Shown here in pieces: positions 1 to 13,262 of a stretch of DNA of 21,570 bases. The stretch is from a virus. The notes below the pieces were generated by a model that worked only from the letters and a program-made list of their open reading frames with translations, did no database searches and was not told the origin of the DNA. Every line of letters begins with the position of its first letter. Within the stretch, counting starts at the first letter, position 1. The stretch spans positions 4,488 to 26,057 of the IMG/VR virus record IMGVR_UViG_3300002231_000828; one strand, given 5' to 3'. Position numbers and translations under genes: made by a program.

Positions 1-845
1 CCGAAGAAATTTAAGTTCCTTACTGTTCCGTAAACTGCGTCAGTGACAAGTATATTTCTACTTGTGGACAAGATTGCCCTTTGGATATTGTCAAAAGCAC
101 CGTTCATATTTAAGAACTTACAGTTTTCGGCTCCATCGATATATAAATTAAAATCACAATACCTTAAATAGACATCAGAAAATAAGCTGTTTTGCATGTC
201 CAAAACCACTAATCCTCTGGCCATATATTCAATTCTAACACGGTTTACATTTACCCTGTTGCCAAATGGAGCCTGGATGCCTGTGGCGTCACCATTAGAT
301 CCATTAAATTGTATATCTTCAACCACTGTACTTGAGTTAGCTGTAAGCATAACTATTGTTGCAGCGGTTTTGATTGTAGTTAGGCGCCAGTTCTCCCCAG
401 TGAATGATTGATTTTCTGCAACCAATCCCGTATTAATTAGGTATGTTCCGGCAGGAAAATATACGCTTCTACCTGTATCCAATGCCGCTTGTATTGCGTC
501 ATAATCATCGACCACACCGTCACCAATTGCACCAAATATCTGTACGTCAATAACCTCAAGGTATCTCCTTTTCCATCTAGCGCCCCCTGAAGTGACAAAT
601 GTTAACCCATCATCATCTGGGGTTGTGGAGTCTGAGGCGTCATAATATACTAAACCTCCACCTTTTGCCCCTGATGTATGCTGAATTAAAAATACACATT
701 GATCATTATATCCAGGCTCAAAGTTTCTTAAGTCGGCAACGTTCTCAATCCTAGAGACCATTCTTTCAGTGACATCATCAGCATTGCTATTGATAATACC
801 TCTAACATTTGCTAGGGTTTCGCCATCATTAAAAGTCTGTTGCAT
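1..845 (-). CDS. Tailspike / receptor-binding protein with pectate-lyase-like beta-helix (partial, C-terminus off window)
   Basis: The frame stays open from ATG at 845 to the window edge, giving 281 complete codons without a stop. Residues 1-25 (TFNDGETLANVRGIIN) look like the short virion-anchoring segment seen at the start of many phage tailspikes. A small Gly/Asp-rich domain follows (about 55-95, with GGGLVYYDASDSTTPDDDG). Residues 104-136 carry the classic entry to a Pectate_lyase_3 right-handed beta-helix: FGAIGDGVVDDYDAIQAAL, then VYFPAGTYL. Proteins of this build bind, and often cleave, host surface polysaccharide at the tail tip. Catalytic residues cannot be assigned because the rest is missing. 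The ATG lies 5 nt after the stop of the tail tube gene, with AGGAT upstream as a modest ribosome binding site. Depolymerase activity is inference; the beta-helix tailspike call is firm. Confidence 0.85.
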   Translation of the reverse strand, partial: MQQTFNDGETLANVRGIINSNADDVTERMVSRIENVADLRNFEPGYNDQCVFLIQHTSGAKGGGLVYYDASDSTTPDDDGLTFVTSGGARWKRRYLEVIDVQIFGAIGDGVVDDYDAIQAALDTGRSVYFPAGTYLINTGLVAENQSFTGENWRLTTIKTAATIVMLTANSSTVVEDIQFNGSNGDATGIQAPFGNRVNVNRVRIEYMARGLVVLDMQNSLFSDVYLRYCDFNLYIDGAENCKFLNMNGAFDNIQRAILSTSRNILVTDAVYGTVRNLNFF

Positions 846-850
846 CTATT

Positions 851-1336
851 TCAATCCTGCCAAATGTCGCCGTCATCCCACGGATTAACTAATCCGCCAG
901 TACCATCATCATACCAAAAATTAGCATTACTCAATATCAAAATCTGGCCAGCGCTCTCAAGAGTCAAAGCGTAGGTCTCAGCGTTATTGAATGAACCAGC
1001 CCTTTCAATGGTTATGATCTCGAAAACGCCTTGATAGAAATAAATATCTTCAGAGATTAGCCTAAAATTCTTATGAACTCTAGCCGCCGCTGAGTCTTGG
1101 ACCGTTTTTAAAGCTGCGTTATCGCTGAAGAATCCTGTTGCTGATATTGAGTACCCAATTACTCCGCAGCCTTGCAGGAGGGTTTTATTGCCTACGCTTG
1201 CTTTAGTAGTTACGTCTACAGGCTCTTTGCTTAATGTGATGGATGTATCGAGGAGACACCCTATTGTCGAATAGACAGGGACCGGATCATCAGTCCCAAG
1301 CTGAAGAAGATACTTATCTCCGCAAAACTTAGTCAA
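851..1336 (-). CDS. Major tail tube protein (TP901-1 MTP-like)
   Basis: A 161-residue protein resembling the TP901-1/phage_tail_2 family of tail tube proteins, which stack as hexamers to form the siphovirus tail. Family-like features are the opening (KYLLQLGTDDPVPVYSTIGC), the segment SITLSKEPVDVTTKAS, the central GYSISATGFFSDNAALKTVQ, and a final strand pattern AETYALTLESAGQI. The acidic C-terminus (WYDDGTGGLVNPWDDGDIWQD) is extra compared with short members. Translation starts at TTG, whose TTGA overlaps the stop of the head-tail joining gene, so the two are coupled. Position after connector and joining proteins agrees with the role. It marks the phage as long-tailed. Confidence 0.82.
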   Translation of the reverse strand: MTKFCGDKYLLQLGTDDPVPVYSTIGCLLDTSITLSKEPVDVTTKASVGNKTLLQGCGVIGYSISATGFFSDNAALKTVQDSAAARVHKNFRLISEDIYFYQGVFEIITIERAGSFNNAETYALTLESAGQILILSNANFWYDDGTGGLVNPWDDGDIWQD

Positions 1337-1683
1337 ACTGATTTGTCCCTTAAGAGAGATCCTCTTATTTTCATGAATTGATTCATCCCATCAATATTCT
1401 CTACAGATAGGAAATCATAAACCTTGTTCCTATAAACCAAGCGAAGGGTGCCAAGGTCAGGGCTAATACTTTCATCGAACCAGGTTGTAAACTCTAAAGT
1501 TTTCTGAGTGTTTTCTTTCTGCTTTTGGAAAGACTCACCACCAGATTTAAACTTAACCGCGACATAAAGCTCAGTAAGAGTTGACCAATTATCCGCCCGA
1601 CCTCCTGAAGTATCGGCGACGGGGTTATTGATTTGAATGGTTAGCTGATTTATAAATGAACCAGCGTTTATGCCGCAGCTCAT
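1333..1683 (-). CDS. Head-tail joining (adaptor/stopper) protein
   Basis: A 116-residue protein of the size and pattern of the phage head-tail joining family (Phage_H_T_join; SPP1 gp16/HK97 gp10-like). These form a ring that closes the filled head and docks the tail. Typical features are the N-terminal LTIQINNPVADTSGGRADNWSTL (the 'D..GG....W..L' pattern), then strands with VAVKFKSGGESFQKQKENTQK, and the C-terminal LVYRNKVYDFLSVENID segment ending in MKIRGSL. It starts at ATG 1683, overlapping the end of the connector by four bases (ATGA), and overlaps the tail tube start at its own end. Gene order connector, joining protein, tail tube is the conserved siphovirus order. Confidence 0.8.
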   Translation of the reverse strand: MSCGINAGSFINQLTIQINNPVADTSGGRADNWSTLTELYVAVKFKSGGESFQKQKENTQKTLEFTTWFDESISPDLGTLRLVYRNKVYDFLSVENIDGMNQFMKIRGSLLRDKSV

Positions 1684-2117
1684 CTAACCTTATGGATCAC
1701 ATTAGAATCAATAAAAGACTTAGCCCCAGAAGCCGCAATGCACGAGCAATCATTACAATCCCCTCTATTCGCATACAGATAGGCCCCTATCATGGTCATT
1801 CCTATCCTCATATCTGCGGGAACGTCTTCTTTATTTACTCCATACCCAACCCTAAATACAATCTTAACCGCGTTTCTATTCCTAAGACTTGAAGGCGTCG
1901 GGGCGTTTATGTTAAATACAAGTCTAGAGTACATATCAGGATCATAATTATCAAGATAGTAATTAGTAGCCGGGTAAACCGTTTCGTTATTAGCATCATC
2001 GAATGTACTCACCTGAGTTATAGAAAGAGTCGGAGGGAATGGAAGCTCGATATAATCAGAGCCGTCTTTTCTTGAACATTGATTCAGTGCCTTGCCTAAC
2101 TCCTGTCCAGTACACAT
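1680..2117 (-). CDS. gp6/phiE125 gp8-like head-tail connector, C-terminal fragment (frameshifted)
   Basis: A 145-codon frame that holds the C-terminal two thirds of a head-tail connector. From about residue 22 it shows the family pattern: YIELPFPPTLSITQVSTFD, then NYYLDNYDPDMYSRLVF, then AVKIVFRVGYG, then VPADMRIGMTMIGAYLYANRG. The apparent ATG at 2117 has no Shine-Dalgarno sequence and lies inside the upstream connector frame. Its first 18 or so codons are therefore probably out-of-frame translation of the other fragment. Removing one A from the AAAA run (plus-strand tttt, 2067-2070) joins both frames into one protein of about 225 residues (...ESMFKK-DGSDYIELP...), the usual size for the family. 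The C-terminus has a short Cys cluster (CNDCSC). Confidence 0.78.
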   Translation of the reverse strand: MCTGQELGKALNQCSRKDGSDYIELPFPPTLSITQVSTFDDANNETVYPATNYYLDNYDPDMYSRLVFNINAPTPSSLRNRNAVKIVFRVGYGVNKEDVPADMRIGMTMIGAYLYANRGDCNDCSCIAASGAKSFIDSNVIHKVR

Positions 2118-2358
2118 TATTATACCCGCTTACCGGGAAACAATCTAGATAAGTGGTGATCTCTTGATCGATAAACTTTCGCCCTGTATAATTCTGGGCT
2201 TGTTCTACAGCCGCCGAAGCGTACATATCAAACAAGGCGTCATCTGTAGTGAAACTAGCCGGACGCCTTACCTGTGCCTTTATGTCATCGCCACTGATTG
2301 GAGTAATTAAGGGCGCTTCGGTTACGCTGGAGCGCTCAATTAAATCAGTGGCGTACAT
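2056..2358 (-). CDS. gp6/phiE125 gp8-like head-tail connector, N-terminal fragment (frameshifted)
   Basis: A 100-codon frame carrying the N-terminal part of the connector that binds under the portal. Family signs are ITPISGDDIKAQVRR near residues 19-32, DALFDMYASAAVEQAQNYTGRK around 40-61 (the conserved helix '...A...AE.YTGR'), and EITTYLDCFP. The last few codons (RRL and stop) follow the frame break at 2067-2070 and are not part of the native protein. ATG at 2358 follows the stop of the 75-residue gene by three bases. This is the 5' end of the gene continued at 1680-2117. Confidence 0.75.
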   Translation of the reverse strand: MYATDLIERSSVTEAPLITPISGDDIKAQVRRPASFTTDDALFDMYASAAVEQAQNYTGRKFIDQEITTYLDCFPVSGYNNVYWTGVRQGTESMFKKRRL

Positions 2359-2361
2359 TAT

Positions 2362-2589
2362 TTATTTGTTTTCTTCTGAAACGACTACGGCTTTTGTTTC
2401 GCCGTCCATTTGCTTGATAGCAACTCGGGTCTTTTTATTAGCGTCTTTTGCGTAAATAGCGCATCCGATAGAGACTAATAATTCAGCAACGGAGTCATCA
2501 ACTTCTTGAGGAATTGGTTTGCTATTGCCTTTGTTAAACTCGGGCTTAAAATCTCCATGTCCTTTTTTTGTTACGATTATTTTTTTCAT
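2362..2589 (-). CDS. Small hypothetical protein in head module
   Basis: A 75-residue protein between the capsid-region terminator and the connector, in the position where many siphophages carry a short head-completion or hypothetical gene. It is lysine-rich at the N-terminus (MKKIIVTKKGHG), has a predicted helix SVAELLVSIGCAIYAKDANKK in the middle, and ends in an acidic tail. I do not recognise a family. It has no membrane segment or signal peptide. The ATG at 2589 is preceded by AAAAGG about 6 nt upstream, a weak ribosome binding site. It stops 3 nt before the connector start, so the two are probably co-translated. Confidence 0.6.
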   Translation of the reverse strand: MKKIIVTKKGHGDFKPEFNKGNSKPIPQEVDDSVAELLVSIGCAIYAKDANKKTRVAIKQMDGETKAVVVSEENK

Positions 2590-2609
2590 TAAGTGCCTTT
2601 TAAAATAGT

Positions 2610-2641
2610 GGAAAAATAAAGGGGGCCGAAACCCCCAGTTT
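2610..2641 (-). terminator. Rho-independent terminator downstream of capsid genes
   Basis: On the minus strand a five-base-pair G/C stem (GGGGG, loop TTTCGG, CCCCC) is followed directly by TTTATTTTT. It lies in the short gap after the 137-residue protein and before the 75-residue gene, so it would cut transcripts after the highly expressed capsid genes and lower expression of the connector and tail genes. The plus-strand reading (AGTTTTT after the stem) is weaker. The call rests on stem and T-tract only. Confidence 0.7.
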
Positions 2642-2645
2642 TTAA

Positions 2646-3059
2646 CTATACCTTAAATCTACTTGGGTTACCGAGAATGGCAACACAAGATAAAGGTCCA
2701 TCAGCAGATAGAGTCACAACCGCTCTCGCGAATTGCTTGTCTCCAACATAACCGATTTTTGTTTGACTTGATGGGGAAACAACCTCAGAGTTCCCGCCGC
2801 CTTGTGGCAGTGTATCAACAGTGCCATCAGCGTCAGCCCATCCGGTCGACCCATCAGCAGACTCCTGGATTTTTACAGTTCCAGTAGTTAGGGCACCAGT
2901 CGACACGATGAACTCCATCGACTCGTAGCCGCGAAGGTCGCCTGTTGGACCTAAAATGTTAACCGCGTCGCCATTTGTGGCACCAGTTCCAGGGGCCGCA
3001 ACTGGGGCGATAGAGTTAACAGGTTGAATATGATTGTGTAAATCTTTAGAAGCGCTCAA
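2646..3059 (-). CDS. Probable head decoration/stabilisation protein after the capsid gene
   Basis: A 137-residue beta-rich protein directly downstream of the major capsid gene. Recognisable elements are an N-terminal stretch with SIAPVAAPGTGATNGDAVN, the segment YESMEFIVSTGALTTGTVKI, and ESADGSTGWADAD. This build is common in small phage and prophage proteins next to capsid genes; their role is usually guessed to be capsid decoration. It starts at TTG 3059, chosen because TAAGGAGGATACA just upstream is an excellent Shine-Dalgarno sequence with correct spacing. It is followed by a terminator. No membrane segment is seen. The decoration role comes from position and fold style, not from a specific motif. 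Confidence 0.6.
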   Translation of the reverse strand: MSASKDLHNHIQPVNSIAPVAAPGTGATNGDAVNILGPTGDLRGYESMEFIVSTGALTTGTVKIQESADGSTGWADADGTVDTLPQGGGNSEVVSPSSQTKIGYVGDKQFARAVVTLSADGPLSCVAILGNPSRFKV

Positions 3060-3069
3060 TGTATCCTCC

Positions 3070-4314
3070 TTATGGGGCTGTTACTTTCAAAAGTTTGATT
3101 GAATCGAAGCCGATCACTTGACCACCAACTCGTTTCCTCGTCTTAAAGACCACTGTCGGATAAGATGAGTACGGATCACGCAAGACAGAAACACCTAAGC
3201 GATCAACGATCATATAAGCGTCAGCGAAGTTTGCGAAAACAACAGGCAAAGTGTCATTTCCGATGTCGGGCATGTCATTTAGTTCAATAGTTCTTTGACC
3301 CAAGATCATAGAAGGCTCACCAGCTTGAACGCTAGGCTCCCATAGGTACTGACCGTCTAAATCTTTAAGCTTTCTAGTGGTTCTCAGAGTGCCCCTATTC
3401 ATGCCAAAGACAGCACCATCTCTCCATTCTTGTTTTAAAGAATATTGAAGATTAATAAAGTCATCAAAAGCAACTACACTATTAGCTTCTGAATCGACTT
3501 GGCCAATTGCTCCACGCTCATAAATGTCCGAGTCTGCTGAAGCTGGGTAAGTCAAGAAGCCTTTAGGCTGAAGTACTCCATCACCAAGAACGAAAGCATT
3601 ATTCTCTCTTCTTGTAAACTTGCGGTCAACTTTACCCATGAGCCATTGCTCCATATTGATACTTGAGTCTTCAAGAATCTTTAAGGTTGCAGGTGGGTTC
3701 GATTGAAGCTCACGAGTTGATATTGTGTACTTGCCCAGTTCTGGAGTTGTGCTATTCCCAATAACTTGAGTTTCACCAGTCCAGAAAGCTTGAGCTTCAT
3801 CATCATCATAAAAGCCTTCGTATTCGCTTGTTCCTGTAGTAGTCACAGAAGCAACTTGACGCAATGGGCTAGTTTCAAAGACTTGACCACGAGTAGGGCC
3901 TGAAGTGTCAGGAAATACGGTGATTCCGCCATCAGGATCAGATTGGACAGAAAGAAGTTTCTTCTCAATGTCGCTCATGCTAGAGATTAAGTCTTCACCT
4001 TTTGCACCGTCTGCGATGCCTTTAGTTAAGCGGTTAAAACAATCTTTTTTAATCTGAAGCTCTTCTTTCTCGTTAGAACCATTAGACTCAGATTTTTTCT
4101 TAAAATCAGCCTCAAGCTTTTCTACAGCTTTGGTGATCTCATCGGTTTTTTTGTCTAGACCATCACTGATCTTGTCAATTTTCTGTTCAATTTCAGCAAC
4201 AGCATCACCATTAGCTTTTTTTTCTAATAAATCATCGTTGGTTTTTTTGAACTCTTCCCAGTCCTTTGCTCTTTCTCCAAGAGCTTTTTTGATTTCTGCT
4301 AAGCCTTCGCTCAT
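3070..4314 (-). CDS. Major capsid protein, HK97 fold
   Basis: A 414-residue protein with the two-part layout of HK97-like capsid proteins. Residues 1 to about 120 are a highly charged coiled coil (delta/scaffold domain, rich in EIKK, EIEQKIDKI and KLEAD), which the protease normally removes. The capsid domain begins near residue 122 with SVQSDPDGGITVFP. Further family signs are TSPLRQVASVTTT, the GE-rich E-loop area, NAFVLGDGVLQPKGFLTY around 240, and the C-terminal FKTRKRVGGQVI and FDSIKLLKV. Cleavage is expected close to residues 118-122; the exact bond is inference. The ATG has GAGGAAGG as a strong ribosome binding site and follows the protease gene closely. Confidence 0.92.
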   Translation of the reverse strand: MSEGLAEIKKALGERAKDWEEFKKTNDDLLEKKANGDAVAEIEQKIDKISDGLDKKTDEITKAVEKLEADFKKKSESNGSNEKEELQIKKDCFNRLTKGIADGAKGEDLISSMSDIEKKLLSVQSDPDGGITVFPDTSGPTRGQVFETSPLRQVASVTTTGTSEYEGFYDDDEAQAFWTGETQVIGNSTTPELGKYTISTRELQSNPPATLKILEDSSINMEQWLMGKVDRKFTRRENNAFVLGDGVLQPKGFLTYPASADSDIYERGAIGQVDSEANSVVAFDDFINLQYSLKQEWRDGAVFGMNRGTLRTTRKLKDLDGQYLWEPSVQAGEPSMILGQRTIELNDMPDIGNDTLPVVFANFADAYMIVDRLGVSVLRDPYSSYPTVVFKTRKRVGGQVIGFDSIKLLKVTAP

Positions 4315-4335: not shown

Positions 4336-4995
4336 TTAAAAAGTGGACTCTTTCAACATTGCTAAAAGTTGAGCGTTTTCCTCATCACGAGAAATACCAG
4401 CATAACCTTTAGACAATAAGGTTTTGGCCTGCTTTGTTGAAAGGCCACCATCGCGGAGGTATCTTTCTAAGGACCTTTTATCTGGGGCTTGTCCATCGTC
4501 CCGGATAAGTGTTTTTACGTTCGTTGCTACAGCTTCAGGATTCATCCCAAAGGGAAGAATTGAAACCTCAAACAATTTAACTTTCTTAAGCATTCGGACC
4601 ATCTCACCGTCAACCGCCTCATCAGCAAAGTCTAGAGTTTTGTACCCAATAGACATGGCCTTGGGCCCTGTGCCAGAGTAGAGGTTATATGCCATCTGCG
4701 AAAGCTGGGTGGCTTTTTCTCCAAGCCAGAATTGACCTTTAACAAAAAGCCCTTCTGCTCGCTCTTCCATTGAAAGGAAATCGCCTACAAGTTTATCCAT
4801 ATTGTGGAACCACGGCATAACTGGAAGTTGCTTTTTATCGTTCCACTCCGCAAGGGACTCTTTAAAAGCTCCCTCAACGACTACATCATTGCCTAGATCA
4901 ACATTTCCAAACGTCGAAGCATAACCCTCAAAATAGCCCTGCTCATCGGCTGGGGCCTTCATTTCGAAGGGTACTGTAACTCGTTTTAGTTCCAT
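4336..4995 (-). CDS. HK97-family prohead protease (peptidase U35)
   Basis: A 219-residue serine protease that cleaves the capsid delta domain and itself during head maturation. Family features are FEGYASTFGNVDLGNDVVVEGAF (residues 22-44), His64 in MPWFHNMDKLVGDF, Ser115 in PKAMSIGY, and Glu143 in KLFEVSILPFGMNPEA. These fit the His-Ser-Glu triad expected for this family. It sits directly upstream of the major capsid gene as usual. The ATG at 4995 has no Shine-Dalgarno sequence; a TATAAT element ends 8 nt before it, so a leaderless or nearly leaderless transcript is possible (see promoter entry). Confidence 0.9.
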   Translation of the reverse strand: MELKRVTVPFEMKAPADEQGYFEGYASTFGNVDLGNDVVVEGAFKESLAEWNDKKQLPVMPWFHNMDKLVGDFLSMEERAEGLFVKGQFWLGEKATQLSQMAYNLYSGTGPKAMSIGYKTLDFADEAVDGEMVRMLKKVKLFEVSILPFGMNPEAVATNVKTLIRDDGQAPDKRSLERYLRDGGLSTKQAKTLLSKGYAGISRDEENAQLLAMLKESTF

Positions 4996-5236: not shown

Positions 5237-5577
5237 GTATTCGGAATTATCTGTTGAATGATCTTTATGCTCGAGTCTTCAATCCACTCTAGGACCGCTG
5301 TGCCCGTTGTTGATTGAATAGAAAGTCCATAGGTTCCAATTGGTAGGACAGCAGTTTCGGAGCTTAAAAGTTGCCATGAGACAATACCTGTACCGCCATC
5401 ATCTAAGATCACGTTCGGGCTTGTGTCATCTGCCTCCAATGCAATGGTTTTGGTAGCCATGTCAAACAAGGCAACTCTAACTAAATCGGCTGAGGCTAGG
5501 CCTAAATAAGCGCTATCGTTCTCTGTTAGGGTGACGATAAGTTTCGCTTGATTACCGGCAATTATTGTGTCAGCCAT
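5233..5577 (-). CDS. Small beta-sandwich virion protein (fibre/cassette component)
   Basis: A 114-residue protein made of predicted beta strands with no membrane segment. Features are AGNQAKLIVTLTENDSAYLG at the N-terminus, VRVALFDMATKTIALEADDT, then VILDDGGTGIVSWQLLSSET, and PIGTYGLSIQSTT near the end. The alternating pattern is that of an Ig-like or baseplate-upper-protein-type beta sandwich found in small phage accessory structural proteins. Its ATG at 5577 lies inside the end of the previous frame, with GGAG 8 nt upstream. It ends with ATGA overlap into the next gene. A role in attaching or capping the fibres is inferred from neighbours only. Confidence 0.6.
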   Translation of the reverse strand: MADTIIAGNQAKLIVTLTENDSAYLGLASADLVRVALFDMATKTIALEADDTSPNVILDDGGTGIVSWQLLSSETAVLPIGTYGLSIQSTTGTAVLEWIEDSSIKIIQQIIPNT

Positions 5578-5791
5578 TACATAGCTCCATGCTCTTTAAA
5601 AATACCGTTTTTATTCCCAGGTCTTTACTTATAACTGTCACATTATTAGACAGTATAGCCGCCTGGCTACTGATGCCAATTGCAGTTTCTAAATCAGATT
5701 CTACGTTTATATTTTTCTGAATTTCGCTCTCAACATTTGAAGAGAAAGAAAAACTGGTGGTGATATTCATTGAGCTACTGATTGAGCCCAA
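5570..5791 (-). CDS. Decapeptide-repeat protein, C-terminal fragment (frameshifted)
   Basis: A 73-codon frame with TTG as first possible start and no ribosome binding site. It continues the ten-residue repeat of the upstream 68-residue frame: SSSMNITTSF, SFSSNVESEI, QKNINVESDL, ETAIGISSQA. Reading the same frame back past the TTG to just after the previous stop adds a further unit, YKTIDVLGSI. Inserting one A in the AAA at plus 5827-5829 fuses the two frames into one protein of about 153 residues with an almost unbroken period. An 18-bp DNA repeat (5699-5716 and 5911-5928) encodes part of the KNINVES units in the two fragments. Function unknown; probably fibrous or beta-solenoid-like. Confidence 0.6.
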   Translation of the reverse strand: MGSISSSMNITTSFSFSSNVESEIQKNINVESDLETAIGISSQAAILSNNVTVISKDLGIKTVFLKSMELCNG

Positions 5792-5823
5792 GACGTCTAT
5801 CGTTTTATAAAAAGATGAAGTTA

Positions 5824-6030
5824 TTATTTAAGGTTTTTGTCTTTATCCGTGACAATAGCTAGGCTTTTGTTTATATCAGTAACAAGAAAAAGGCTTTTAG
5901 AAAACTCGCTTTCTACGTTTATATTTTTATAAATTAAACATCCAGTTTCTCCAAATGGAACGCCAAGAGCGCCAAGTCCCCGCGTGATAATTCTCTGGAC
6001 AAGGCCAAGTCCTACAGTAATCAAGCTCAC
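5824..6030 (-). CDS. Decapeptide-repeat protein, N-terminal fragment (frameshifted)
   Basis: A 68-codon frame with a glycine-rich, mildly hydrophobic N-terminus (VGLGLVQRIITRGLGALG) followed by ten-residue repeats of the form xK(S/N)(L/I)x(V/I/L)x(S/T)(D/E)x: YKNINVESEF, SKSLFLVTDI, NKSLAIVTDK, DKNLK. It starts at GTG 6030, whose GTGA overlaps the stop of the giant fibre gene, so it is translated with that gene. The stop falls in the middle of a repeat unit, and the repeat resumes in the -1 frame downstream, so this is the 5' part of a longer protein. No enzymatic motif is seen. Confidence 0.65.
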   Translation of the reverse strand: MSLITVGLGLVQRIITRGLGALGVPFGETGCLIYKNINVESEFSKSLFLVTDINKSLAIVTDKDKNLK

Positions 6031-7886
6031 TGCGGATCTTTCTCAAAAACTTCTGTAGAAGATGGGTTACCAGCCGCATCTTTAAGATCAAAGGTCTCGA
6101 TAGGCGTTGTTCCATCATCGTCATATCTAATCAAGGTGTTAGTATTGACATCAATCTTATCTCGATTGGTTAAATGCTTTCTAGCCAGCAAGATATTTGC
6201 ATTATCTGGAGTCACTGTATTCGCCCCATCCGTCCCCCTCATGTCCTCATTGTTCTCACAATTGAGCACATTAGCGACTGAATCAAGGCTTCCATTAAAG
6301 AAATATTGCTGGGTAACCTCCCGCTCATTCCTTACATAAAGATCACCTTCGCCCACCTGGTTACCATTTGAATCAGTCATATAAACAGCGTACTCACCGT
6401 CATCGACCCCGGAAAGGTCAAACGTGGTTGAGTAATAAGCCGTGGCAACTTCGGGGCATATCAAATTGCTAACAATGATTGTTCCATCGCTTTTTATTAT
6501 CCTAGCCGCCACCTTGAGACCGGTTCTCGTATCGTTAAGCTTAGTTTTAATCTCAGCAGCTCCAGGTCCTCCCCCGCCTCCTGTTGAGGTGTTGTCTATG
6601 ATCTTGGTATAGACTTTATCCGAGTTTGTGCTTATTCCATAATTTCCTGTTGATGGGAATAAAACAAAATCCTCACCATCGTCTCGATACAATCTGAAAT
6701 CATAATCGGTATACAGAAGCTGTCTTGCTGAGGTGTTATCAATGAAGATATTAGCCTTAGCCGTATTAATCACAGCGTTTCCTGCATCCTCTAGGGTTAT
6801 GCCTTCGAAAAAGTTTCTTATCCCTTCCTCTAGAGTTCCAGCAAAATAAAACCATGCCACAGTCCTCTGTTTTGTGCTCTTGCCATCGGCGTCATTAGCG
6901 TCAATCTCAATATTGCCATTATCTAAGGTAAACTCTGTCACTGTCTCGCCATCAATTCCAATAACTGCATAAGCGTCAAGTACTTCTTGATTAGCCAGAA
7001 TACTCCATCCATCAGAGGTGGCAACGGTGAAAGCCTCGAACCACTTGTGGGCTGTAGCTCCATTCTGTTCAGCAAGCCTCACTCTTACCACATCACCAGC
7101 CGAGAAGTCTGTGCCGTCAATGTATGAATCTGAATAGGTAGTGCCTGGAATCTCTTCATTGGCAATCTCTGCCAAGGTGGTTTCGTTATAGACTTGAATC
7201 CTAGAGCCTGCGACAATGTTAGGCACTGAGGATTGAGCCTGTACCGCCGGGATATAGGAGGTCCCATCATCAGACTGGAAGCTTGTAAAATCAGGATGAT
7301 CCGAGCCACCTCTTGAAACCCAAAAGCCTAATTGAGCGGCTTCGTCTTCTATAAAACCTCTTAACGTTTCGTAAGCGGTCCCAGCTTCTCCAACAATATC
7401 GCTCCAGTTAAATGATGGTTTGCCCTGATAAGTTCCTGGCAATGAATTATTATAGTTTATCTCTCTAAGAATGTCTAGTCCTGAATTAGTCCCGCCGTCC
7501 TGAACTTCATAAGAAAATAGCTTACCTCCAACCGTGATCGGCGCCGCAGAATGGTCCACAATAGTAATTGTAATTGCCGGGTCTCCCGTGGCTGCGTCTA
7601 AGGCTAGGAATGGCGTTGCTATTGGGTACGCTTGGCCGATTAAATTAGTAATGCCGTATAAATCAATAACATCGACCCTTGACTGTTGATAGCCATTAGT
7701 TTGATACTTTACAACCAAGTGCGTGTCTTTGGTAAAGTTACCATGAGTCGCATCACCATAAACTTGAATAGTCTGATCAATCGCCCCGGTGTTTGATTTG
7801 CGTTTACCGTAGTAATCCCGACGTCTTGCTGGTATCTCGCTTGAGCAGCTCCAGGTATTCCAGTCGATAACGTATATACTGCACAA
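6027..7886 (-). CDS. Giant fibre protein, C-terminal fragment (frameshifted)
   Basis: A 619-codon frame for the C-terminal part of a giant beta-rich fibre. Native sequence probably begins at the G-run at 7784-7787; codons before that are an out-of-frame read of the middle fragment. Right after it comes AIDQTIQVYGDATHGNFT, then a domain with QTNGYQQSRVDVIDLYG, a region of mixed beta structure, a GGGGGPG hinge near the middle of the C-terminal half, an Ig-like segment (FDLSGVDDGEYAVYMTD), and a C-terminal knob with TNTLIRYDDDGTTPIETFDL. The apparent TTG start at 7886 has no ribosome binding site. This part lies downstream of, and belongs with, the fragments at 7709-7984 and 7981-10494. Likely role: host-binding or head/neck fibre. 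Confidence 0.7.
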   Translation of the reverse strand: MCSIYVIDWNTWSCSSEIPARRRDYYGKRKSNTGAIDQTIQVYGDATHGNFTKDTHLVVKYQTNGYQQSRVDVIDLYGITNLIGQAYPIATPFLALDAATGDPAITITIVDHSAAPITVGGKLFSYEVQDGGTNSGLDILREINYNNSLPGTYQGKPSFNWSDIVGEAGTAYETLRGFIEDEAAQLGFWVSRGGSDHPDFTSFQSDDGTSYIPAVQAQSSVPNIVAGSRIQVYNETTLAEIANEEIPGTTYSDSYIDGTDFSAGDVVRVRLAEQNGATAHKWFEAFTVATSDGWSILANQEVLDAYAVIGIDGETVTEFTLDNGNIEIDANDADGKSTKQRTVAWFYFAGTLEEGIRNFFEGITLEDAGNAVINTAKANIFIDNTSARQLLYTDYDFRLYRDDGEDFVLFPSTGNYGISTNSDKVYTKIIDNTSTGGGGGPGAAEIKTKLNDTRTGLKVAARIIKSDGTIIVSNLICPEVATAYYSTTFDLSGVDDGEYAVYMTDSNGNQVGEGDLYVRNEREVTQQYFFNGSLDSVANVLNCENNEDMRGTDGANTVTPDNANILLARKHLTNRDKIDVNTNTLIRYDDDGTTPIETFDLKDAAGNPSSTEVFEKDPQ

Positions 7887-7984
7887 TCTACCCTTGTCGT
7901 TACATCACTTAAATCTTGGTATGTGAACCCAGCTTTTTTCCAATTGTTGATCGAGGCTGTATCTAAGAATTCAGCATCATTCAC
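7709..7984 (-). CDS. Giant fibre protein, middle fragment (frameshifted)
   Basis: A 91-codon frame whose first 65 or so residues bridge two larger frames. It contains DAEFLDTASINNWKKAGFTY, VYTLSTGIPGAAQARYQQD and ITTVNANQTPG, then leaves the native frame at the GGGG run (plus 7784-7787). After that point the fibre sequence continues in the -1 frame. The GTG at 7984 has no Shine-Dalgarno sequence. Upstream the same frame reads straight into the end of the 837-codon frame if one T is added to the TTTT run (plus aaaa, 7986-7989). It is therefore an internal piece of one protein, not a separate gene. Confidence 0.6.
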   Translation of the reverse strand: MNDAEFLDTASINNWKKAGFTYQDLSDVTTRVDCAVYTLSTGIPGAAQARYQQDVGITTVNANQTPGRLIRLFKFMVMRLMVTLPKTRTWL

Positions 7985-10494
7985 GAAAAGAAAGCCGTCG
8001 GGCCATTGGCTTTCATTGGGAAATCGGTATTTATCAAAGAAGCCTGAGTAATGAAGGCATCAACCAAAGCAGAGTATTGAAGCGGGGCATCGTTTGAGGT
8101 TATCGCCGTATATTTTTTAGTGGCTCTATTATATGATATATCAGTGCCATAAATAAGACCATGGCTCCCATTGTAAACGGGATCAGCTACAAGCTCAATC
8201 GTGACAGTTTCAGACCCAGATAGAACCCGGCCTGTGAATCTCTGAATGATAAAGCCAGCTTTTTGGATGATATAATCAACCGTATCCATCGAATGCTCAT
8301 AAGCTAAAGTATTGCTTGTTGCAGAAGCTAAGACACTTTGAGTAGCTGTTGTACATATCTGAATAAGAGACCCAGCCTCATTCACGTTTATTGTAAACGT
8401 ATCTACAGGGGCCTGAATAGTCACGCCAGTGGCGGCCCCAGAAATTGCGCTAGTGGTTGCGTCTGATCCGTTCTTCATTACCGCAGTCAATGCCGAGGCA
8501 TTAATCGAATTATAGTGAATGTCAACGGTATTACCTATCCAGGTCATTGCATCAAAGTCAAGGCTTATGTCTCCCGTTCCGGTGTACTCAATTCTAATAG
8601 CATCGTCACAACCATTGAAAGTTATCTCTGCCAAATTATCTAGGGCAGTCTGGAGCGCTGCCTCTGTTGCACCTGTGATAGTTATCGCCTGGACATCGGT
8701 ACATGCTACAACAGAAACCCCAGACAAGTTTGCGCCGTTGTGAGTTATCTCTACGCAGCCGGATATTGTTAGTCCACTATAAGCGCCCACGCCAATGGGC
8801 CTAAGAGTTACCTCTGAACAGTTTTTGAAAAGCGCTCCTACATGGCTCCATATGGCGGAAACTGAACAGGTCGCCAGATAGCGAACATAAGGGCGAACCG
8901 TTGAGCCTTGACCACCGACAACACAAGTATCTAGAATGGCGGTTTCGCCTGCAATTGCTTCGACTTCACAACCAAGATCACCATCAGAAATCCAGGCTTT
9001 CCATATCTTATTATCATAGTCAGTGACATCTAAGAATTCACAAGATTGCCCTGTACTATCCCAATATAAATCACCATCACCGGCCCCGATTTTTATTGGA
9101 TGCCCAAAAAGGAATTGAGATGTACCTATCCCTTTATTAGTTAAAACCGTGTAATCAATATTAGCTGAAAGAATTATCTCTTTATGGTTGTTAAATGTTG
9201 CAGGGCTACTTGAACCGCCTGAAGTTATTACTGCTTTTTCTAAGATATAAAATCCATATAGGTGATATTGCGCTGCGTTTGTAGCATCATTCTTTGATGT
9301 GGAATACATAACAGCATCAATGTCAGTAATGTCCCATATTCCAGAGTTGAATTCATCAATGATATAGCTCCCTGTATCTTCAGGGTTAAAGATGATAGGA
9401 CCACCGTTAAGCATTGGGGGAATTGAATCAGTTCCTCCAGCATGCCATATCCTGTAAGAGTTTGTCGCTGACCTTAGAGCGATAGTGGCTCCAATCTGCT
9501 CAAGAGTCGATGATCTGTCAAGGTTACTCATTTTCATCCCGCAACAAACAAGCTTACCAGTCAAATCTAAAGATGCAGTCAGAGCCGCTTGCACTGGAAA
9601 AACTCTATCCGCAGTAGTTGGAGTTGTTGAGATTGACCCTGAGTCTGGAAATAGGCCGCCCATGACACTATTTTGAGTACCTAAGCCTGTCGGGTTGTTG
9701 GGAGTCGCACAAGTTCTTGTAACTGCATTAAAGTCAATAGTTGACACAACCGCAGTCGGATCACTCCAAGAAGGAGCCCACTTAGGGTCTGCTGTAGCCC
9801 CTGAAGAAGTATTTAGCAATGGCATAAGCATGGACACGGAGTCCGCCGCCCCTGTAGGCTGTGAGAATGTTGTTGAAGCTGTAGACTTAAGCGCTACAGT
9901 GATCAATTGATTCCATCTATTGCCACCAGTTGATACCGTCATTGTTGGCCTAAATACTGAGCCCGCTGTCTTCTGGTATCCATAGCCTATGAACAAGGAG
10001 ACATCTGTACCGTACTCAATGTAATCCATCCAAGTTACACCGCCATAAAACTGCCTATGCGATGCCTCATCACAAGCCATGATGTAAAGAATCAGGCAAT
10101 CATCTACCGTTGTCGTTAAACTTGGAAACTGTATGAATTGACCTGATGCATCAACGGTTGAAGCTGTGGTGGCTAACCCATCAATAAATGATCCGCTTCC
10201 TAGTATGTCCTTGAATTGTATATAAGCACCAACTATGTCATTGGACGCGCTGAAGGTTGCGCTAGGTGCCGTCTCTGATGCAGTCGCTCTCTTAGAGTAA
10301 ACGCCTACACGAATCTGACTCCCTGGATTATCATTATGCTCTTCAGTCCAGCCAGATGGAGCGGTTGTTATTGTATTGTTACCATTTTGAACCCAGATAC
10401 CTAAAAGACCATCGTTTTCGTCTACTGAAACGGTGTCGAGTGTCAGTGAGGTTGCTGTTGCCTCGCTTAGGGCGTGGTTTTGGTAGTAAGCCAT
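7981..10494 (-). CDS. Giant fibre protein, N-terminal fragment (large beta-rich virion protein)
   Basis: An 837-codon frame of almost entirely predicted beta structure, low in Lys/Arg and rich in Thr, Ser, Gly and Asn, as in virion fibres. Residues 1-205 form a jelly-roll-like domain (TAPSGWTEEHNDN, SKRATASETAPSATFSASN, MACDEASHRQFYG, RWNQLITVALKST). A second domain (about 215-440) has HLYGFYILEKAV at its end. From about 480 to 700 short strands with many single Cys and Asn residues suggest a beta-helix shaft (TCVVGG, FKNCSEVTL, LTISGCVEI, VVACTDVQAI, FNGCDDAI). The tail (SLINTDFPMKANGPTAFF) breaks off at a T-run and continues in the next frame. ATG directly follows the previous stop. With the two downstream fragments the reconstructed protein is about 1,490 residues. 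Confidence 0.72.
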   Translation of the reverse strand: MAYYQNHALSEATATSLTLDTVSVDENDGLLGIWVQNGNNTITTAPSGWTEEHNDNPGSQIRVGVYSKRATASETAPSATFSASNDIVGAYIQFKDILGSGSFIDGLATTASTVDASGQFIQFPSLTTTVDDCLILYIMACDEASHRQFYGGVTWMDYIEYGTDVSLFIGYGYQKTAGSVFRPTMTVSTGGNRWNQLITVALKSTASTTFSQPTGAADSVSMLMPLLNTSSGATADPKWAPSWSDPTAVVSTIDFNAVTRTCATPNNPTGLGTQNSVMGGLFPDSGSISTTPTTADRVFPVQAALTASLDLTGKLVCCGMKMSNLDRSSTLEQIGATIALRSATNSYRIWHAGGTDSIPPMLNGGPIIFNPEDTGSYIIDEFNSGIWDITDIDAVMYSTSKNDATNAAQYHLYGFYILEKAVITSGGSSSPATFNNHKEIILSANIDYTVLTNKGIGTSQFLFGHPIKIGAGDGDLYWDSTGQSCEFLDVTDYDNKIWKAWISDGDLGCEVEAIAGETAILDTCVVGGQGSTVRPYVRYLATCSVSAIWSHVGALFKNCSEVTLRPIGVGAYSGLTISGCVEITHNGANLSGVSVVACTDVQAITITGATEAALQTALDNLAEITFNGCDDAIRIEYTGTGDISLDFDAMTWIGNTVDIHYNSINASALTAVMKNGSDATTSAISGAATGVTIQAPVDTFTINVNEAGSLIQICTTATQSVLASATSNTLAYEHSMDTVDYIIQKAGFIIQRFTGRVLSGSETVTIELVADPVYNGSHGLIYGTDISYNRATKKYTAITSNDAPLQYSALVDAFITQASLINTDFPMKANGPTAFFS

Positions 10495-11115: not shown

Positions 11116-11702
11116 CTATTCGAGTTCTGGTATTAAGTGCGCATTAACAGCAAAAGAGGCTACCATGCTTGTATTACCCGTCGGAGCTGTGAAAGTCACA
11201 CCAATGGAGCCGCCAACTGCGAGGTACCATCTAATGGCCTCAATCCTGTAGAGTGTTGGATTTTCAATGTACCACTCGCCCAATTGGCTTCCACCTGTAA
11301 GGGCTGCGCCGTTAGTGCCTCGGGCTGAGTCAAGAGTCAAAGTGCCTGGAGACCCTGGCTTTGTATTAACCTGGATAATATCGCCAGCCCCTCCCGTCAT
11401 TCCTGTGGGCTGGAAGTAAGGCTTTATTGTAAAGTAGCCGTCAGCTATATTTGATTCTAGTGTATTGACAATAAAACGATCAATATAGATATCTCTCGTT
11501 CCTGTGTTTTTCATGTAGATCATAGCCGTTTCCGTGGCACTGTTTAGCGTGATCTTTCCGCTAGTTAAAGCAAACTGCTCGCCGTTTTGGTTGGCCTCGA
11601 AATCTCCAGACTCATTTACAACTCCTTCCCCATAGGCCGCCCAGTCTTATCTACCTTAGACCCGTAATTTGCACCACTATAACCGTTTCTTATTGAACTC
11701 AT
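11116..11702 (-). CDS. Beta-rich virion protein, paralogue B (frameshifted near the N-terminus)
   Basis: The best gene model starts at ATG 11702 (ATGA overlap with the corrected end of paralogue A) and reads MSSIRNGYSGANYGSKVDKT, GRPMG. It then shifts one base at the GGGG run (plus 11628-11631) to continue EGVVNESGDFEANQNGEQFA and on to the stop at 11116. The longest unbroken ATG frame is only 11116-11523 (135 codons). Its ATG has no good ribosome binding site, and the frame is open further upstream without a start codon. The reconstructed 195-residue protein is colinear with paralogue A: KTGRP versus KNGRG, ATETAMIYMKN versus AGETAVFYLKN, and VTFTAPTGNTSMVASFAVNA versus FTYSPPSGVSTMKVYFTINA. 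It is a beta-rich structural protein of unknown exact function. Confidence 0.6.
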
Positions 11703-12497: not shown

Positions 12498-13262
12498 TTA
12501 AAAATCATTGTCTATAAAAACCATCACACAGCGGCAATTTATAACTTCAGAAGCTCCCCCTCTGCGGTCTCCTGGCCTCTGCATCTTCTTTCCCCCTACA
12601 TCGAAAGGATCTTCTCGCTTTCTTTCTTGGCCGTCTGATCGTCTGTGGCTGTCTCTTTCCCGTCCATCCTGAATCGTCACCCACTCCTTTCCATCAGGAG
12701 GAAAGTTCATTTTATTAACCATCTCAAGCTGTGATGCTTGGCTTGCATCGTGGGTTTCAGTCCTGGCTATTGTTCTCGCTCGATGCTGAGCAATGTTGCC
12801 GCCAACGGCCTCTCTAATAGCCTTCGAAATAACCCTTTCTCCCTCTCCCACATTAACGGCAATAGCTGAAGCGATTAGATCAGCCGTGGTCCCTGATATC
12901 AGATTAGATTCAATTAAAGCATTCACAAAAATCCATTGGGTGATTAAGCGCCCTATCTCGCCCTCAATATCTTTCGTTTCTAAGACCATATCAAAAGCTT
13001 TCTGTCCTTCGCTTATGGTTCTCTTAGCCGTTTTATCAATCGTGTCAGCGTAAAGCTTTCCCAATATATCAGCGATGTTCTTTCTATGCTGATTAATGAC
13101 CGAAACCATATCAGCGTTAGACTTAGAGGCTTCCCTGGCTACCCTATTGAATTCTCTATTGAGGGGAAGGATGAATTTCCTTTCAAGAATCATCCGATTG
13201 CGCTCTTGAATTATAGCTTCACGCTGTCTTTCTGCCTCATTTGCTGGATTGAATAAGGGCAC
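12498..13262 (-). CDS. MuF-like head morphogenesis protein (SPP1 gp7 family)
   Basis: A 254-residue minor head protein of the Phage_Mu_F/SPP1 gp7 type, which binds the portal and takes part in head assembly and DNA ejection. The N-terminal 130 residues are charged helices. The diagnostic C-terminal region runs from ARTIARTETHDASQASQLEM, through EWVTIQDGRERDSHRRSDGQ, to the end pattern SEVINCRCVMVF (the usual 'P..H.NCRC' end). It starts at GTG 13262 with AAGGAGG close upstream and overlaps the portal gene by 26 bases. No toxin domain is fused at the C-terminus, so this is the plain morphogenesis form. Confidence 0.88.
   Translation of the reverse strand: MPLFNPANEAERQREAIIQERNRMILERKFILPLNREFNRVAREASKSNADMVSVINQHRKNIADILGKLYADTIDKTAKRTISEGQKAFDMVLETKDIEGEIGRLITQWIFVNALIESNLISGTTADLIASAIAVNVGEGERVISKAIREAVGGNIAQHRARTIARTETHDASQASQLEMVNKMNFPPDGKEWVTIQDGRERDSHRRSDGQERKREDPFDVGGKKMQRPGDRRGGASEVINCRCVMVFIDNDF

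What the first reader, a model, noticed from the sequence alone, without database searches (positions are those of the whole stretch)
6027..10494. Fibre of about 1,490 residues hidden in three frames
The 837-, 91- and 619-codon frames join into one protein if one T is added at 7986-7989 and one G at 7784-7787. The middle piece has no start signal, and the joined junctions read smoothly (GPTAFF-FVNDAEFL and NANQTPG-AIDQTIQVYGD). The second junction also allows a GGG-to-GGG slip, so programmed -1 slippage cannot be dismissed there.
Basis: partly seen in the sequence, partly recalled or inferred. Interest (0 to 1): 0.55.

Follow-up and report, generated by a model that had tools for sequence, protein, structure and literature searches.

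The report
One broken phage horn-type protein gene
Three reading frames in an uncultured phage contig are pieces of one gene for a surface protein of about 1,490 residues, split by likely sequence errors; part of that protein resembles a capsid-horn protein of a marine phage rather than a recognised tail fibre.

Summary
The 837-, 91- and 619-codon frames (minus strand, 10494-6027) are fragments of one gene. Eight relatives encode the stretch around both junctions in one uninterrupted frame (E 2e-93 to 2e-53). Eleven loci match more than one piece, all in a single frame. Programmed slippage is not supported: neither junction has a slippery heptamer, the downstream RNA is unremarkable and relatives stay in frame. 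The contig has another frame break in its head-tail adaptor gene, and single Ns bound the window, so sequence errors are likeliest. "Fibre" is doubtful. Against all 61 Syn5 proteins, the joined protein and 22 of 50 relatives match only gp53 or gp54, never the tail fibre gp46. These are recalled as the horn proteins of cyanophage Syn5. The gp53 match spans both junctions: 44.7 bits against at most 25.4 in 200 shuffles. The gene lies between head-morphogenesis and protease genes. My reading is a fused, horn-type virion appendage; attachment to head rather than tail is inferred (about 45%), and some neighbours point to the tail. The frame break is ordinary; the horn link is the interesting part.

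The parts
7981..10494 (-). 5' part of the gene: 837 codons, ATG start; its stop is reached only because of the first frame break
   Evidence: its last part (from residue 640-738 on) aligns in frame with L024-L027, L045, L046, L048, L050
7784..7990 (-). middle part of the gene, about 68 residues in the -1 frame, no start of its own
   Evidence: matches relatives only in this frame
6027..7787 (-). 3' part of the gene, 586 codons counted from the second junction
   Evidence: follows the middle part at adjacent bases in L020 and L024-L027
7984..7992 (-). first frame break (-1)
   Evidence: eight single-frame relatives span it
7784..7790 (-). second frame break (-1), at a run of four G
   Evidence: nine single-frame relatives span it, none with the G run
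8170..8427 (-). approximate place of a transthyretin-like domain that corresponds to the C-terminal domain of Syn5 gp54 (shown on relatives; not significant for the window alone)
   Evidence: profile A2 vs gp54 540-621, probability 83%, E 9.4e-6; model of relative L025 425-510; window alone vs gp54 E 0.18
7440..8076 (-). gp53-like domain; contains both frame breaks
   Evidence: joined protein 807-1019 vs Syn5 gp53 44-259, 27% identity, 44.7 bits, shuffles at most 25.4; E 4.9e-7 among 61 Syn5 proteins
6588..7229 (-). conserved C-terminal domain (IDGxTVTE motif), by which the 48 metagenomic relatives and Curvibacter phage PCA1 were found
   Evidence: alignment of the window with 21 of the 48
2056..2358 (-). 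internal control: first half of the head-tail adaptor gene, broken by another indel
   Evidence: phrog_442 profile 78-140, E 1.7e-6
1680..2117 (-). internal control: second half of the same adaptor gene, in another frame (shift of the opposite sign)
   Evidence: phrog_442 profile 141-227, E 4.7e-8; one ORF of 193-198 aa in P12026, Pq0 and PB15

Best explanation
10494-6027 (minus strand) is one gene for one virion appendage protein of about 1,490 residues. The three frames are an artefact of two indels in the contig sequence, most likely sequencing or assembly errors, because the same contig carries at least one more frame break in an essential head-tail adaptor gene. The protein has an N-terminal part of its own, a transthyretin-like domain like the C-terminus of Syn5 gp54, a domain like Syn5 gp53, and a conserved C-terminal domain. 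It therefore resembles a fused, enlarged version of the two proteins recalled as making the horn on the Syn5 capsid. Its likely role is a long surface appendage, assembled with the head and projecting from the virion. Sub-estimates: one gene 0.97 (shown); breaks are sequence errors rather than real mutations 0.85 (inferred); virion appendage 0.85 (inferred from homology and gene position); on the head rather than the tail about 0.45 (inferred; lowered slightly from 0.5 when I rechecked the calls and weighed Tunturi_3 and the PCA1 neighbour).
For: One gene: 8 of 13 relative ORFs compared align unbroken across both junctions, a ninth (L020, cut by its contig end) across the second; 11 of 11 loci that match more than one piece do so in one frame; the codon-usage model agrees. 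Errors: the head-tail adaptor is split as well while it is one ORF in three phages; single Ns bound the window on both sides and a third lies 31 bases further out; two more probable breaks near 11,600 and 5,825. Horn-type: hits to Syn5 proteins are only gp53 (window + 7 relatives) and gp54 (18 relatives), none to tail fibre gp46; L009, the relative with the same gene order (portal, MuF-like, this gene, protease, capsid), matches gp54 at 48% over 180 aa (E 1e-39) and again at its N-terminus (E 2e-21); the window-gp53 match needs the joined protein (p1 alone E 1.6, p2 none, p3 4e-4, joined 2e-8). Gene position among head genes in the window, L009, PCA1, L025 and L039; a PHROG labelled 'head decoration' matches two relatives (L048, L045) at E 3e-9 and 4e-9.
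Against: The horn role of gp53/gp54 is recalled; the papers could not be read. For the window itself the gp54 match is not significant (E 0.07 and 0.18). 28 of 50 relatives show no match to gp53 or gp54 at E 1e-3, among them PCA1 and three of the eight that span both junctions (L045, L046, L048). Neighbours of the relatives are mixed: head genes, but also tail-fibre and minor-tail families; in L047 the gene follows a central tail fibre J homologue; in PCA1 the preceding, cut CDS is annotated 'tail fiber protein'; a short match of L048's protein in Tunturiibacter phage Tunturi_3 is annotated 'tail protein' (E 7e-6, 8% of the query). The passages seen of the PCA1 paper describe a 50-nm head and a tail of about 150 nm with no mention of a horn. 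The first adaptor half matches the P12026 adaptor only weakly (E 0.005). No reads were available to prove sequence error.
Confidence: 0.7

Rival explanations
1. Same single gene, but the protein is an ordinary long tail fibre or receptor-binding protein whose gene lies in the head module; the gp53/gp54-like parts are modules shared between horns and fibres.
For: Tail-fibre, collagen-like and minor-tail families occur among neighbours of relatives; L047 sits after a gpJ homologue; PCA1's preceding CDS is annotated tail fibre; Tunturi_3 match annotated tail protein; one viral Foldseek hit is FdeC-like; carbohydrate-binding Pfam models score weakly and below cut-off.
Against: No match to Syn5 gp46 tail fibre while gp53/gp54 match; no PHROG tail-fibre family matched by any piece; the contig carries a separate tailspike-like gene among its tail genes, a label given by eye.
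Confidence: 0.38
2. The frame breaks are real: the gene is a decaying or phase-variable gene in this phage population.
For: Both breaks in this gene have the same sign, and the second lies at a run of four G. Appendage genes are often dispensable (general knowledge).
Against: A break also lies in the head-tail adaptor, which a tailed phage should not be able to lose (general knowledge); runs of four are short for phase variation (general knowledge); codon usage and similarity are intact on both sides of each break.
Confidence: 0.12
3. Programmed -1 ribosomal slippage at one or both junctions makes long and short forms.
For: GGG can re-pair with GGG at the second junction (sequence).
Against: No X XXY YYZ heptamer at either junction (motif as described in passages of PMC10885494); RNA after the junctions folds no better than shuffles (z 0.39 and -0.21); relatives have one open frame; two slips in one gene would be needed.
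Confidence: 0.02

Closest known systems
Cyanophage Syn5 gp53 and gp54 (NC_009531; annotated 'structural protein', horn proteins by recall)
   Same: gp53-like domain spanning both junctions (27% identity, 44.7 bits); relatives share gp54 parts up to 48% identity; a gp54-end-like part precedes the gp53-like part in L024-L027 and L050.
   Different: In Syn5 two adjacent genes of 446 and 622 residues, here one polypeptide of about 1,490 with another N-terminal part and an extra conserved C-terminal domain; another gene position, and head and tail genes of siphovirus type (inferred).
Hypothetical protein of Curvibacter phage PCA1 (OP588919, CDS 305-3250)
   Same: Same C-terminal domain (32% identity, E 2e-13) and upstream of the head maturation protease, with four small CDS between.
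   Different: About 981 residues in one frame; no convincing similarity to the first two pieces and none to gp53/gp54 at E 1e-3.
Uncultured phage locus L009 (IMGVR_UViG_3300047359_001164)
   Same: Same gene order portal, MuF-like, this gene, small ORFs, protease, capsid; 55% identity over the conserved C-terminal domain.
   Different: About 810 residues; N-terminal and central parts match Syn5 gp54, while the window has a different N-terminal part and a gp53-like domain.

Membership tests
Syn5 horn proteins (gp53/gp54) | Sequence similarity to gp53 | tested here: met
   Joined protein 807-1019 vs gp53 44-259, E 4.9e-7 among 61 Syn5 proteins; 44.7 bits vs at most 25.4 in 200 shuffles
Syn5 horn proteins (gp53/gp54) | Sequence similarity to gp54 | tested here: inconclusive
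   Window alone E 0.07 and 0.18; 18 of 50 relatives match at E 1e-3 or better; profile A2 E 9.4e-6
Syn5 horn proteins (gp53/gp54) | Two separate adjacent genes | tested here: not met
   One reading frame in relatives, fused order gp54-end then gp53-like; so it is called related to, not a member of, the gp53/gp54 pair
Syn5 horn proteins (gp53/gp54) | Located on the capsid vertex opposite the tail | not testable with these tools
   needs electron microscopy with labelling
Tail fibre | Gene in the tail module near tape measure and baseplate genes | tested here: not met
   Lies between the MuF-like head morphogenesis gene (12498-13262) and the head maturation protease gene (4336-4995)
Tail fibre | Similarity to a known tail fibre family | tested here: inconclusive
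   No PHROG or Pfam family at E 0.01 for any piece; no match to Syn5 gp46 at E 1e-3; one short match of relative L048 to an annotated tail protein
Tail fibre | Binds the host receptor | not testable with these tools
   needs an adsorption assay
Programmed -1 frameshift gene | Slippery heptamer X XXY YYZ at the shift | tested here: not met
   GCT TTC TTT TCG TGA and ACA CCG GGG CGA
Programmed -1 frameshift gene | Stimulatory RNA structure downstream | tested here: not met
   z 0.39 and -0.21 against 200 shuffles each; nested secondary structure only, pseudoknots not tested
Programmed -1 frameshift gene | Shift conserved in relatives | tested here: not met
   Single open frame in 8 relatives across both sites and in a ninth across the second
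Sequence-error frameshift | Other frame breaks in conserved genes of the same contig | tested here: met
   Head-tail adaptor split, phrog_442 78-140 and 141-227; one ORF in P12026, Pq0 and PB15
Sequence-error frameshift | Reads contradict the contig at the breaks | not testable with these tools
   no reads available

The most novel reading that the evidence does not exclude
The gene encodes a fused gp54-gp53-type horn: a single giant capsid appendage protein, in a siphovirus-type phage, belonging to a family that is spread through uncultured phages (48 metagenomic loci) but almost absent from isolated ones (1 of 50,697 phage records with the window's 3' piece as query). The Syn5 horn would then be the first seen case of a widespread class of head appendages rather than a cyanophage oddity.
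Probability: 0.35. Interest if true: 0.66.

Novelty: new variant of a known kind. Interest (0 to 1): 0.4.

Why it matters
As a frameshift story it is ordinary: a sequence-quality problem that splits a large gene and would mislead gene callers. What matters is the relationship found on the way. What the Syn5 horn does is unsettled (recalled; a passage of PMC10575957 says that horn and knob proteins were proposed to stabilise the capsid), and its two proteins have few named relatives: gp53 matches 6 and gp54 6 of 50,697 phage records, two of each being Syn5 itself. Fused relatives in uncultured phages, some placed among head genes, give a family in which the question of what horns are for could be tested outside cyanophages, for example in Maribacter phage Panino (gp53- and gp54-like genes side by side) or Curvibacter phage PCA1 (shared C-terminal domain).

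Tried and rejected
Pattern-based scans of IMG/VR with the middle piece, the 3' piece, the 5' piece or the portal protein found no relative. The capsid scan gave one relative without this gene (L005). The two-row profile A1 gave 48 loci. The 22-row profile A4 (one peptide pattern) found nothing in the bacterial and archaeal genome collection, while A1 gave one MAG contig (L057), so prophage relatives look rare at this sensitivity. tblastn of the 5' piece against phages found nothing. Profile A2 found nothing in PDB sequences.

Structure: the model of the window's first piece is poor (mean pLDDT 42) and was not searched. The model of relative L025 (mean 47; good only within about 424-960) gave no PDB Foldseek match at E 0.001 or better. 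Among predicted viral structures the Syn5 protein was rank 3 (E 2.5e-6), after an uncharacterised protein of an uncultured phage (E 5e-20) and an unnamed entry (E 8e-8). VIA-align Z of about 9 for transthyretin-like folds may be only a common arrangement and is used as a domain name. The junctions fall at about L025 residues 577 and 645 (inferred), inside the moderately predicted stretch, so the model neither proves nor opposes joining.

I considered calling the gene a tail fibre and kept that as the main rival. I considered a conserved slippery run at the first junction: 3 of 8 relatives (L025, L027, L050) do have four T there, but they are in frame. The 8 relatives that span both junctions are not independent: to L025, L027 is 100% (rounded), L024 92% and L026 60% identical, so they stand for about six lineages by my judgement.

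Counts: one search covered 49 loci (48 from IMG/VR plus PCA1). 13 ORFs went to the joined-protein comparison, chosen because they matched more than one piece or were syntenic (L009); four of these (L009, L028, L031, L039) do not align across the junctions. One search used 50 relatives (adding L057), the joined protein and the three pieces; the pieces alone gave no match at E 1e-3 there. Neighbour scans used 81 of 87 upstream ORFs (rows of L027 and L035 left out as near-duplicates) and 103 of 128 downstream ORFs (near-duplicates, PCA1, L009 and some others left out for size); their answers list only the 25 commonest of 177 and of 137 families. (portal and capsid Pfam models in 24 and 38 records) had 4 and 3 records with a match and settled nothing.

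Papers: passages only of PMC3277595, PMC10885494, PMC9763317, PMC2784036, PMC10575957, PMC8776855 and PMC9860041; others only as search listings. The Syn5 horn papers (Pope 2007 and, from recall, Raytcheva 2014 and a 2014 capsid paper) were not held; what I say of gp53/gp54 as horn proteins is recalled. Searches held no paper with the terms; the rows listed by searches (12 of 38; 10 of 145) showed none that links horn proteins to metagenomic relatives. That is a limit of this library and these listings, not proof of novelty.

Full report
What the window is. The window is bases 4488-26057 of a 26,294-base virus record. It is the stretch between single ambiguous bases at 4487 and 26058; another ambiguous base lies at 4456. 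The genes are those of a tailed phage: head maturation protease, MuF-like head morphogenesis, head-tail adaptor, head closure and major tail protein by family match, and terminase, portal and capsid by match to other phages. By the MuF-like gene the closest isolated phages include Marinomonas phage P12026, Pseudoalteromonas phage Pq0 and Alteromonas phage PB15; in these three, the only ones I opened, nothing like this gene lies between the MuF-like gene and the protease.

The observation. The three frames are present at the stated coordinates. Along the minus strand the reading passes from one frame to the next by -1 twice. A codon-usage frame model passes from one frame to the next with gaps of 4 bases and 1 base at the same two places.

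One protein. The conserved part of the 3' piece, aligned with its only match among 50,697 phage records (Curvibacter phage PCA1), retrieved 48 metagenomic virus loci. In 8 of the 13 relative ORFs compared, the concatenated protein aligns without interruption across both junctions, at 32-37% identity (L024, L025, L026, L027, L045, L046, L048, L050; E 2e-93 to 2e-53); the alignments start between residues 640 and 738 of the joined protein. L020, cut by its contig end, aligns across the second junction. In L020 and L024-L027 the middle piece ends and the 3' piece begins at adjacent bases. Of 49 loci, 11 match more than one piece at E 0.01, all 11 in one frame; no locus has matches in two frames. 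The middle piece matches relatives only in the expected frame. These relatives stand for about six lineages, not eight (my judgement).

Why the frames are broken. The head-tail adaptor of the same contig is split too: one ORF matches positions 78-140 of PHROG 442 and the next, in another frame, positions 141-227. In P12026, Pq0 and PB15 it is one ORF of 193-198 residues; the window's second half matches residues 77-187 of them (E 5e-13 to 6e-8), the first half only P12026 and weakly (E 0.005). This break has the opposite sign, which fits random indels and not a programme. Two further probable breaks, near 11,600 and 5,825, rest on codon usage and reading by eye only. The passages I read give homopolymer errors in 2.1-2.8% of genes in a 454 assembly and 0.3-1.0% in Illumina (PMC3277595); the platform of this contig is unknown. 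Slippage is not supported: no heptamer, ordinary RNA folds downstream, no conserved run at the second site in nine relatives, and relatives in frame.

What the protein is. No piece matches Pfam or PHROGs at E 0.01. The model of relative L025, compared with predicted viral structures, gave as its third match a 622-residue structural protein of cyanophage Syn5 (E 2.5e-6), which is gp54 by length and description. Compared with all 61 Syn5 proteins, the joined window protein matches gp53 only (E 4.9e-7), and among 50 relatives 18 match gp54 and 7 match gp53 (22 different relatives in all); nothing matches the tail fibre gp46 or any other Syn5 protein at E 1e-3. The best cases are strong: L009 with gp54, 48% identity over 180 residues, E 1e-39, plus 39% over the N-terminal 166; L054 and L026 with gp53, E 7e-22 and 2e-18. 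Of the eight relatives that span both junctions, five match gp53 or gp54 at this level and three (L045, L046, L048) do not. The window-gp53 alignment covers 807-1019 of the joined protein, includes both junctions, scores 44.7 bits against at most 25.4 in 200 shuffles, and is not reached by any piece alone. So a protein of an isolated phage, read in one frame, supports the joining independently of metagenomic contigs. In L024-L027 and L050 a gp54-end-like part precedes the gp53-like part, so the family looks like a fusion of the two Syn5 proteins with other N-terminal parts and a further conserved C-terminal domain.

How it probably works. From recall, gp53 and gp54 make the thin horn on the Syn5 capsid vertex opposite the tail, and antibodies to them did not block infection; a passage of PMC10575957 confirms the horn and its place and says that it was proposed to stabilise the capsid. 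By homology and by gene position among head genes (window, L009, PCA1, L025, L039), I infer a long beta-rich appendage assembled with the head. The tail cannot be excluded: neighbour families of the relatives include tail fibres and minor tail proteins as well as terminase, portal, capsid and scaffold (commonest families only), L047 sits behind a gpJ homologue, the CDS before the PCA1 gene is annotated tail fibre, a short match of L048's protein is annotated tail protein in Tunturiibacter phage Tunturi_3, 28 of 50 relatives show no gp53/gp54 match, and the passages on PCA1 morphology mention no horn.

Verdict. The finding is right about the sequence and its joining, wrong to keep slippage open, and perhaps too narrow in calling the product a fibre. 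The frame break itself deserves little interest; the link between an unnamed family of uncultured-phage proteins and the Syn5 horn deserves some.

Noticed in passing
window 1680-2358 (minus strand): Head-tail adaptor gene split into two overlapping frames; one ORF in three relatives, so another indel in the contig.
   Followed up: yes
window 11116-11650 (minus strand): Coding signal runs on upstream of the listed ATG at 11523, while an ATG just after the previous gene lies in another frame; probably a further frame break near 11,600.
   Followed up: partly
window 5570-6030 (minus strand): Two short repetitive ORFs just downstream of the gene read like one protein with a further frame break near 5,825; no relative proves it.
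   Followed up: partly
window 3-845 and flank L002 3788-4594: A gene that reads like a pectate-lyase-fold tailspike (by eye; only its last part was scanned against PHROGs, without a match) lies between a major-tail-protein paralogue and other tail genes; two single Ns fall inside it.
   Followed up: partly
window 851-1336; L002 2114-2527 and 2540-2956: Three major-tail-protein-like genes in one contig; the first two listed match phrog_1407, the third looks alike by eye.
   Followed up: partly
L061 7001-9655 (Maribacter phage Panino genes 0100 and 0099): Relatives of Syn5 gp53 and of the gp54 C-terminal domain lie side by side in a Maribacter phage, annotated hypothetical; a culturable place to look for a horn.
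   Followed up: partly
L054 3552-8888: A 1,779-codon open frame with two stretches similar to gp53 (E 7e-22 and 9e-9), the longest frame among the relatives.
   Followed up: no
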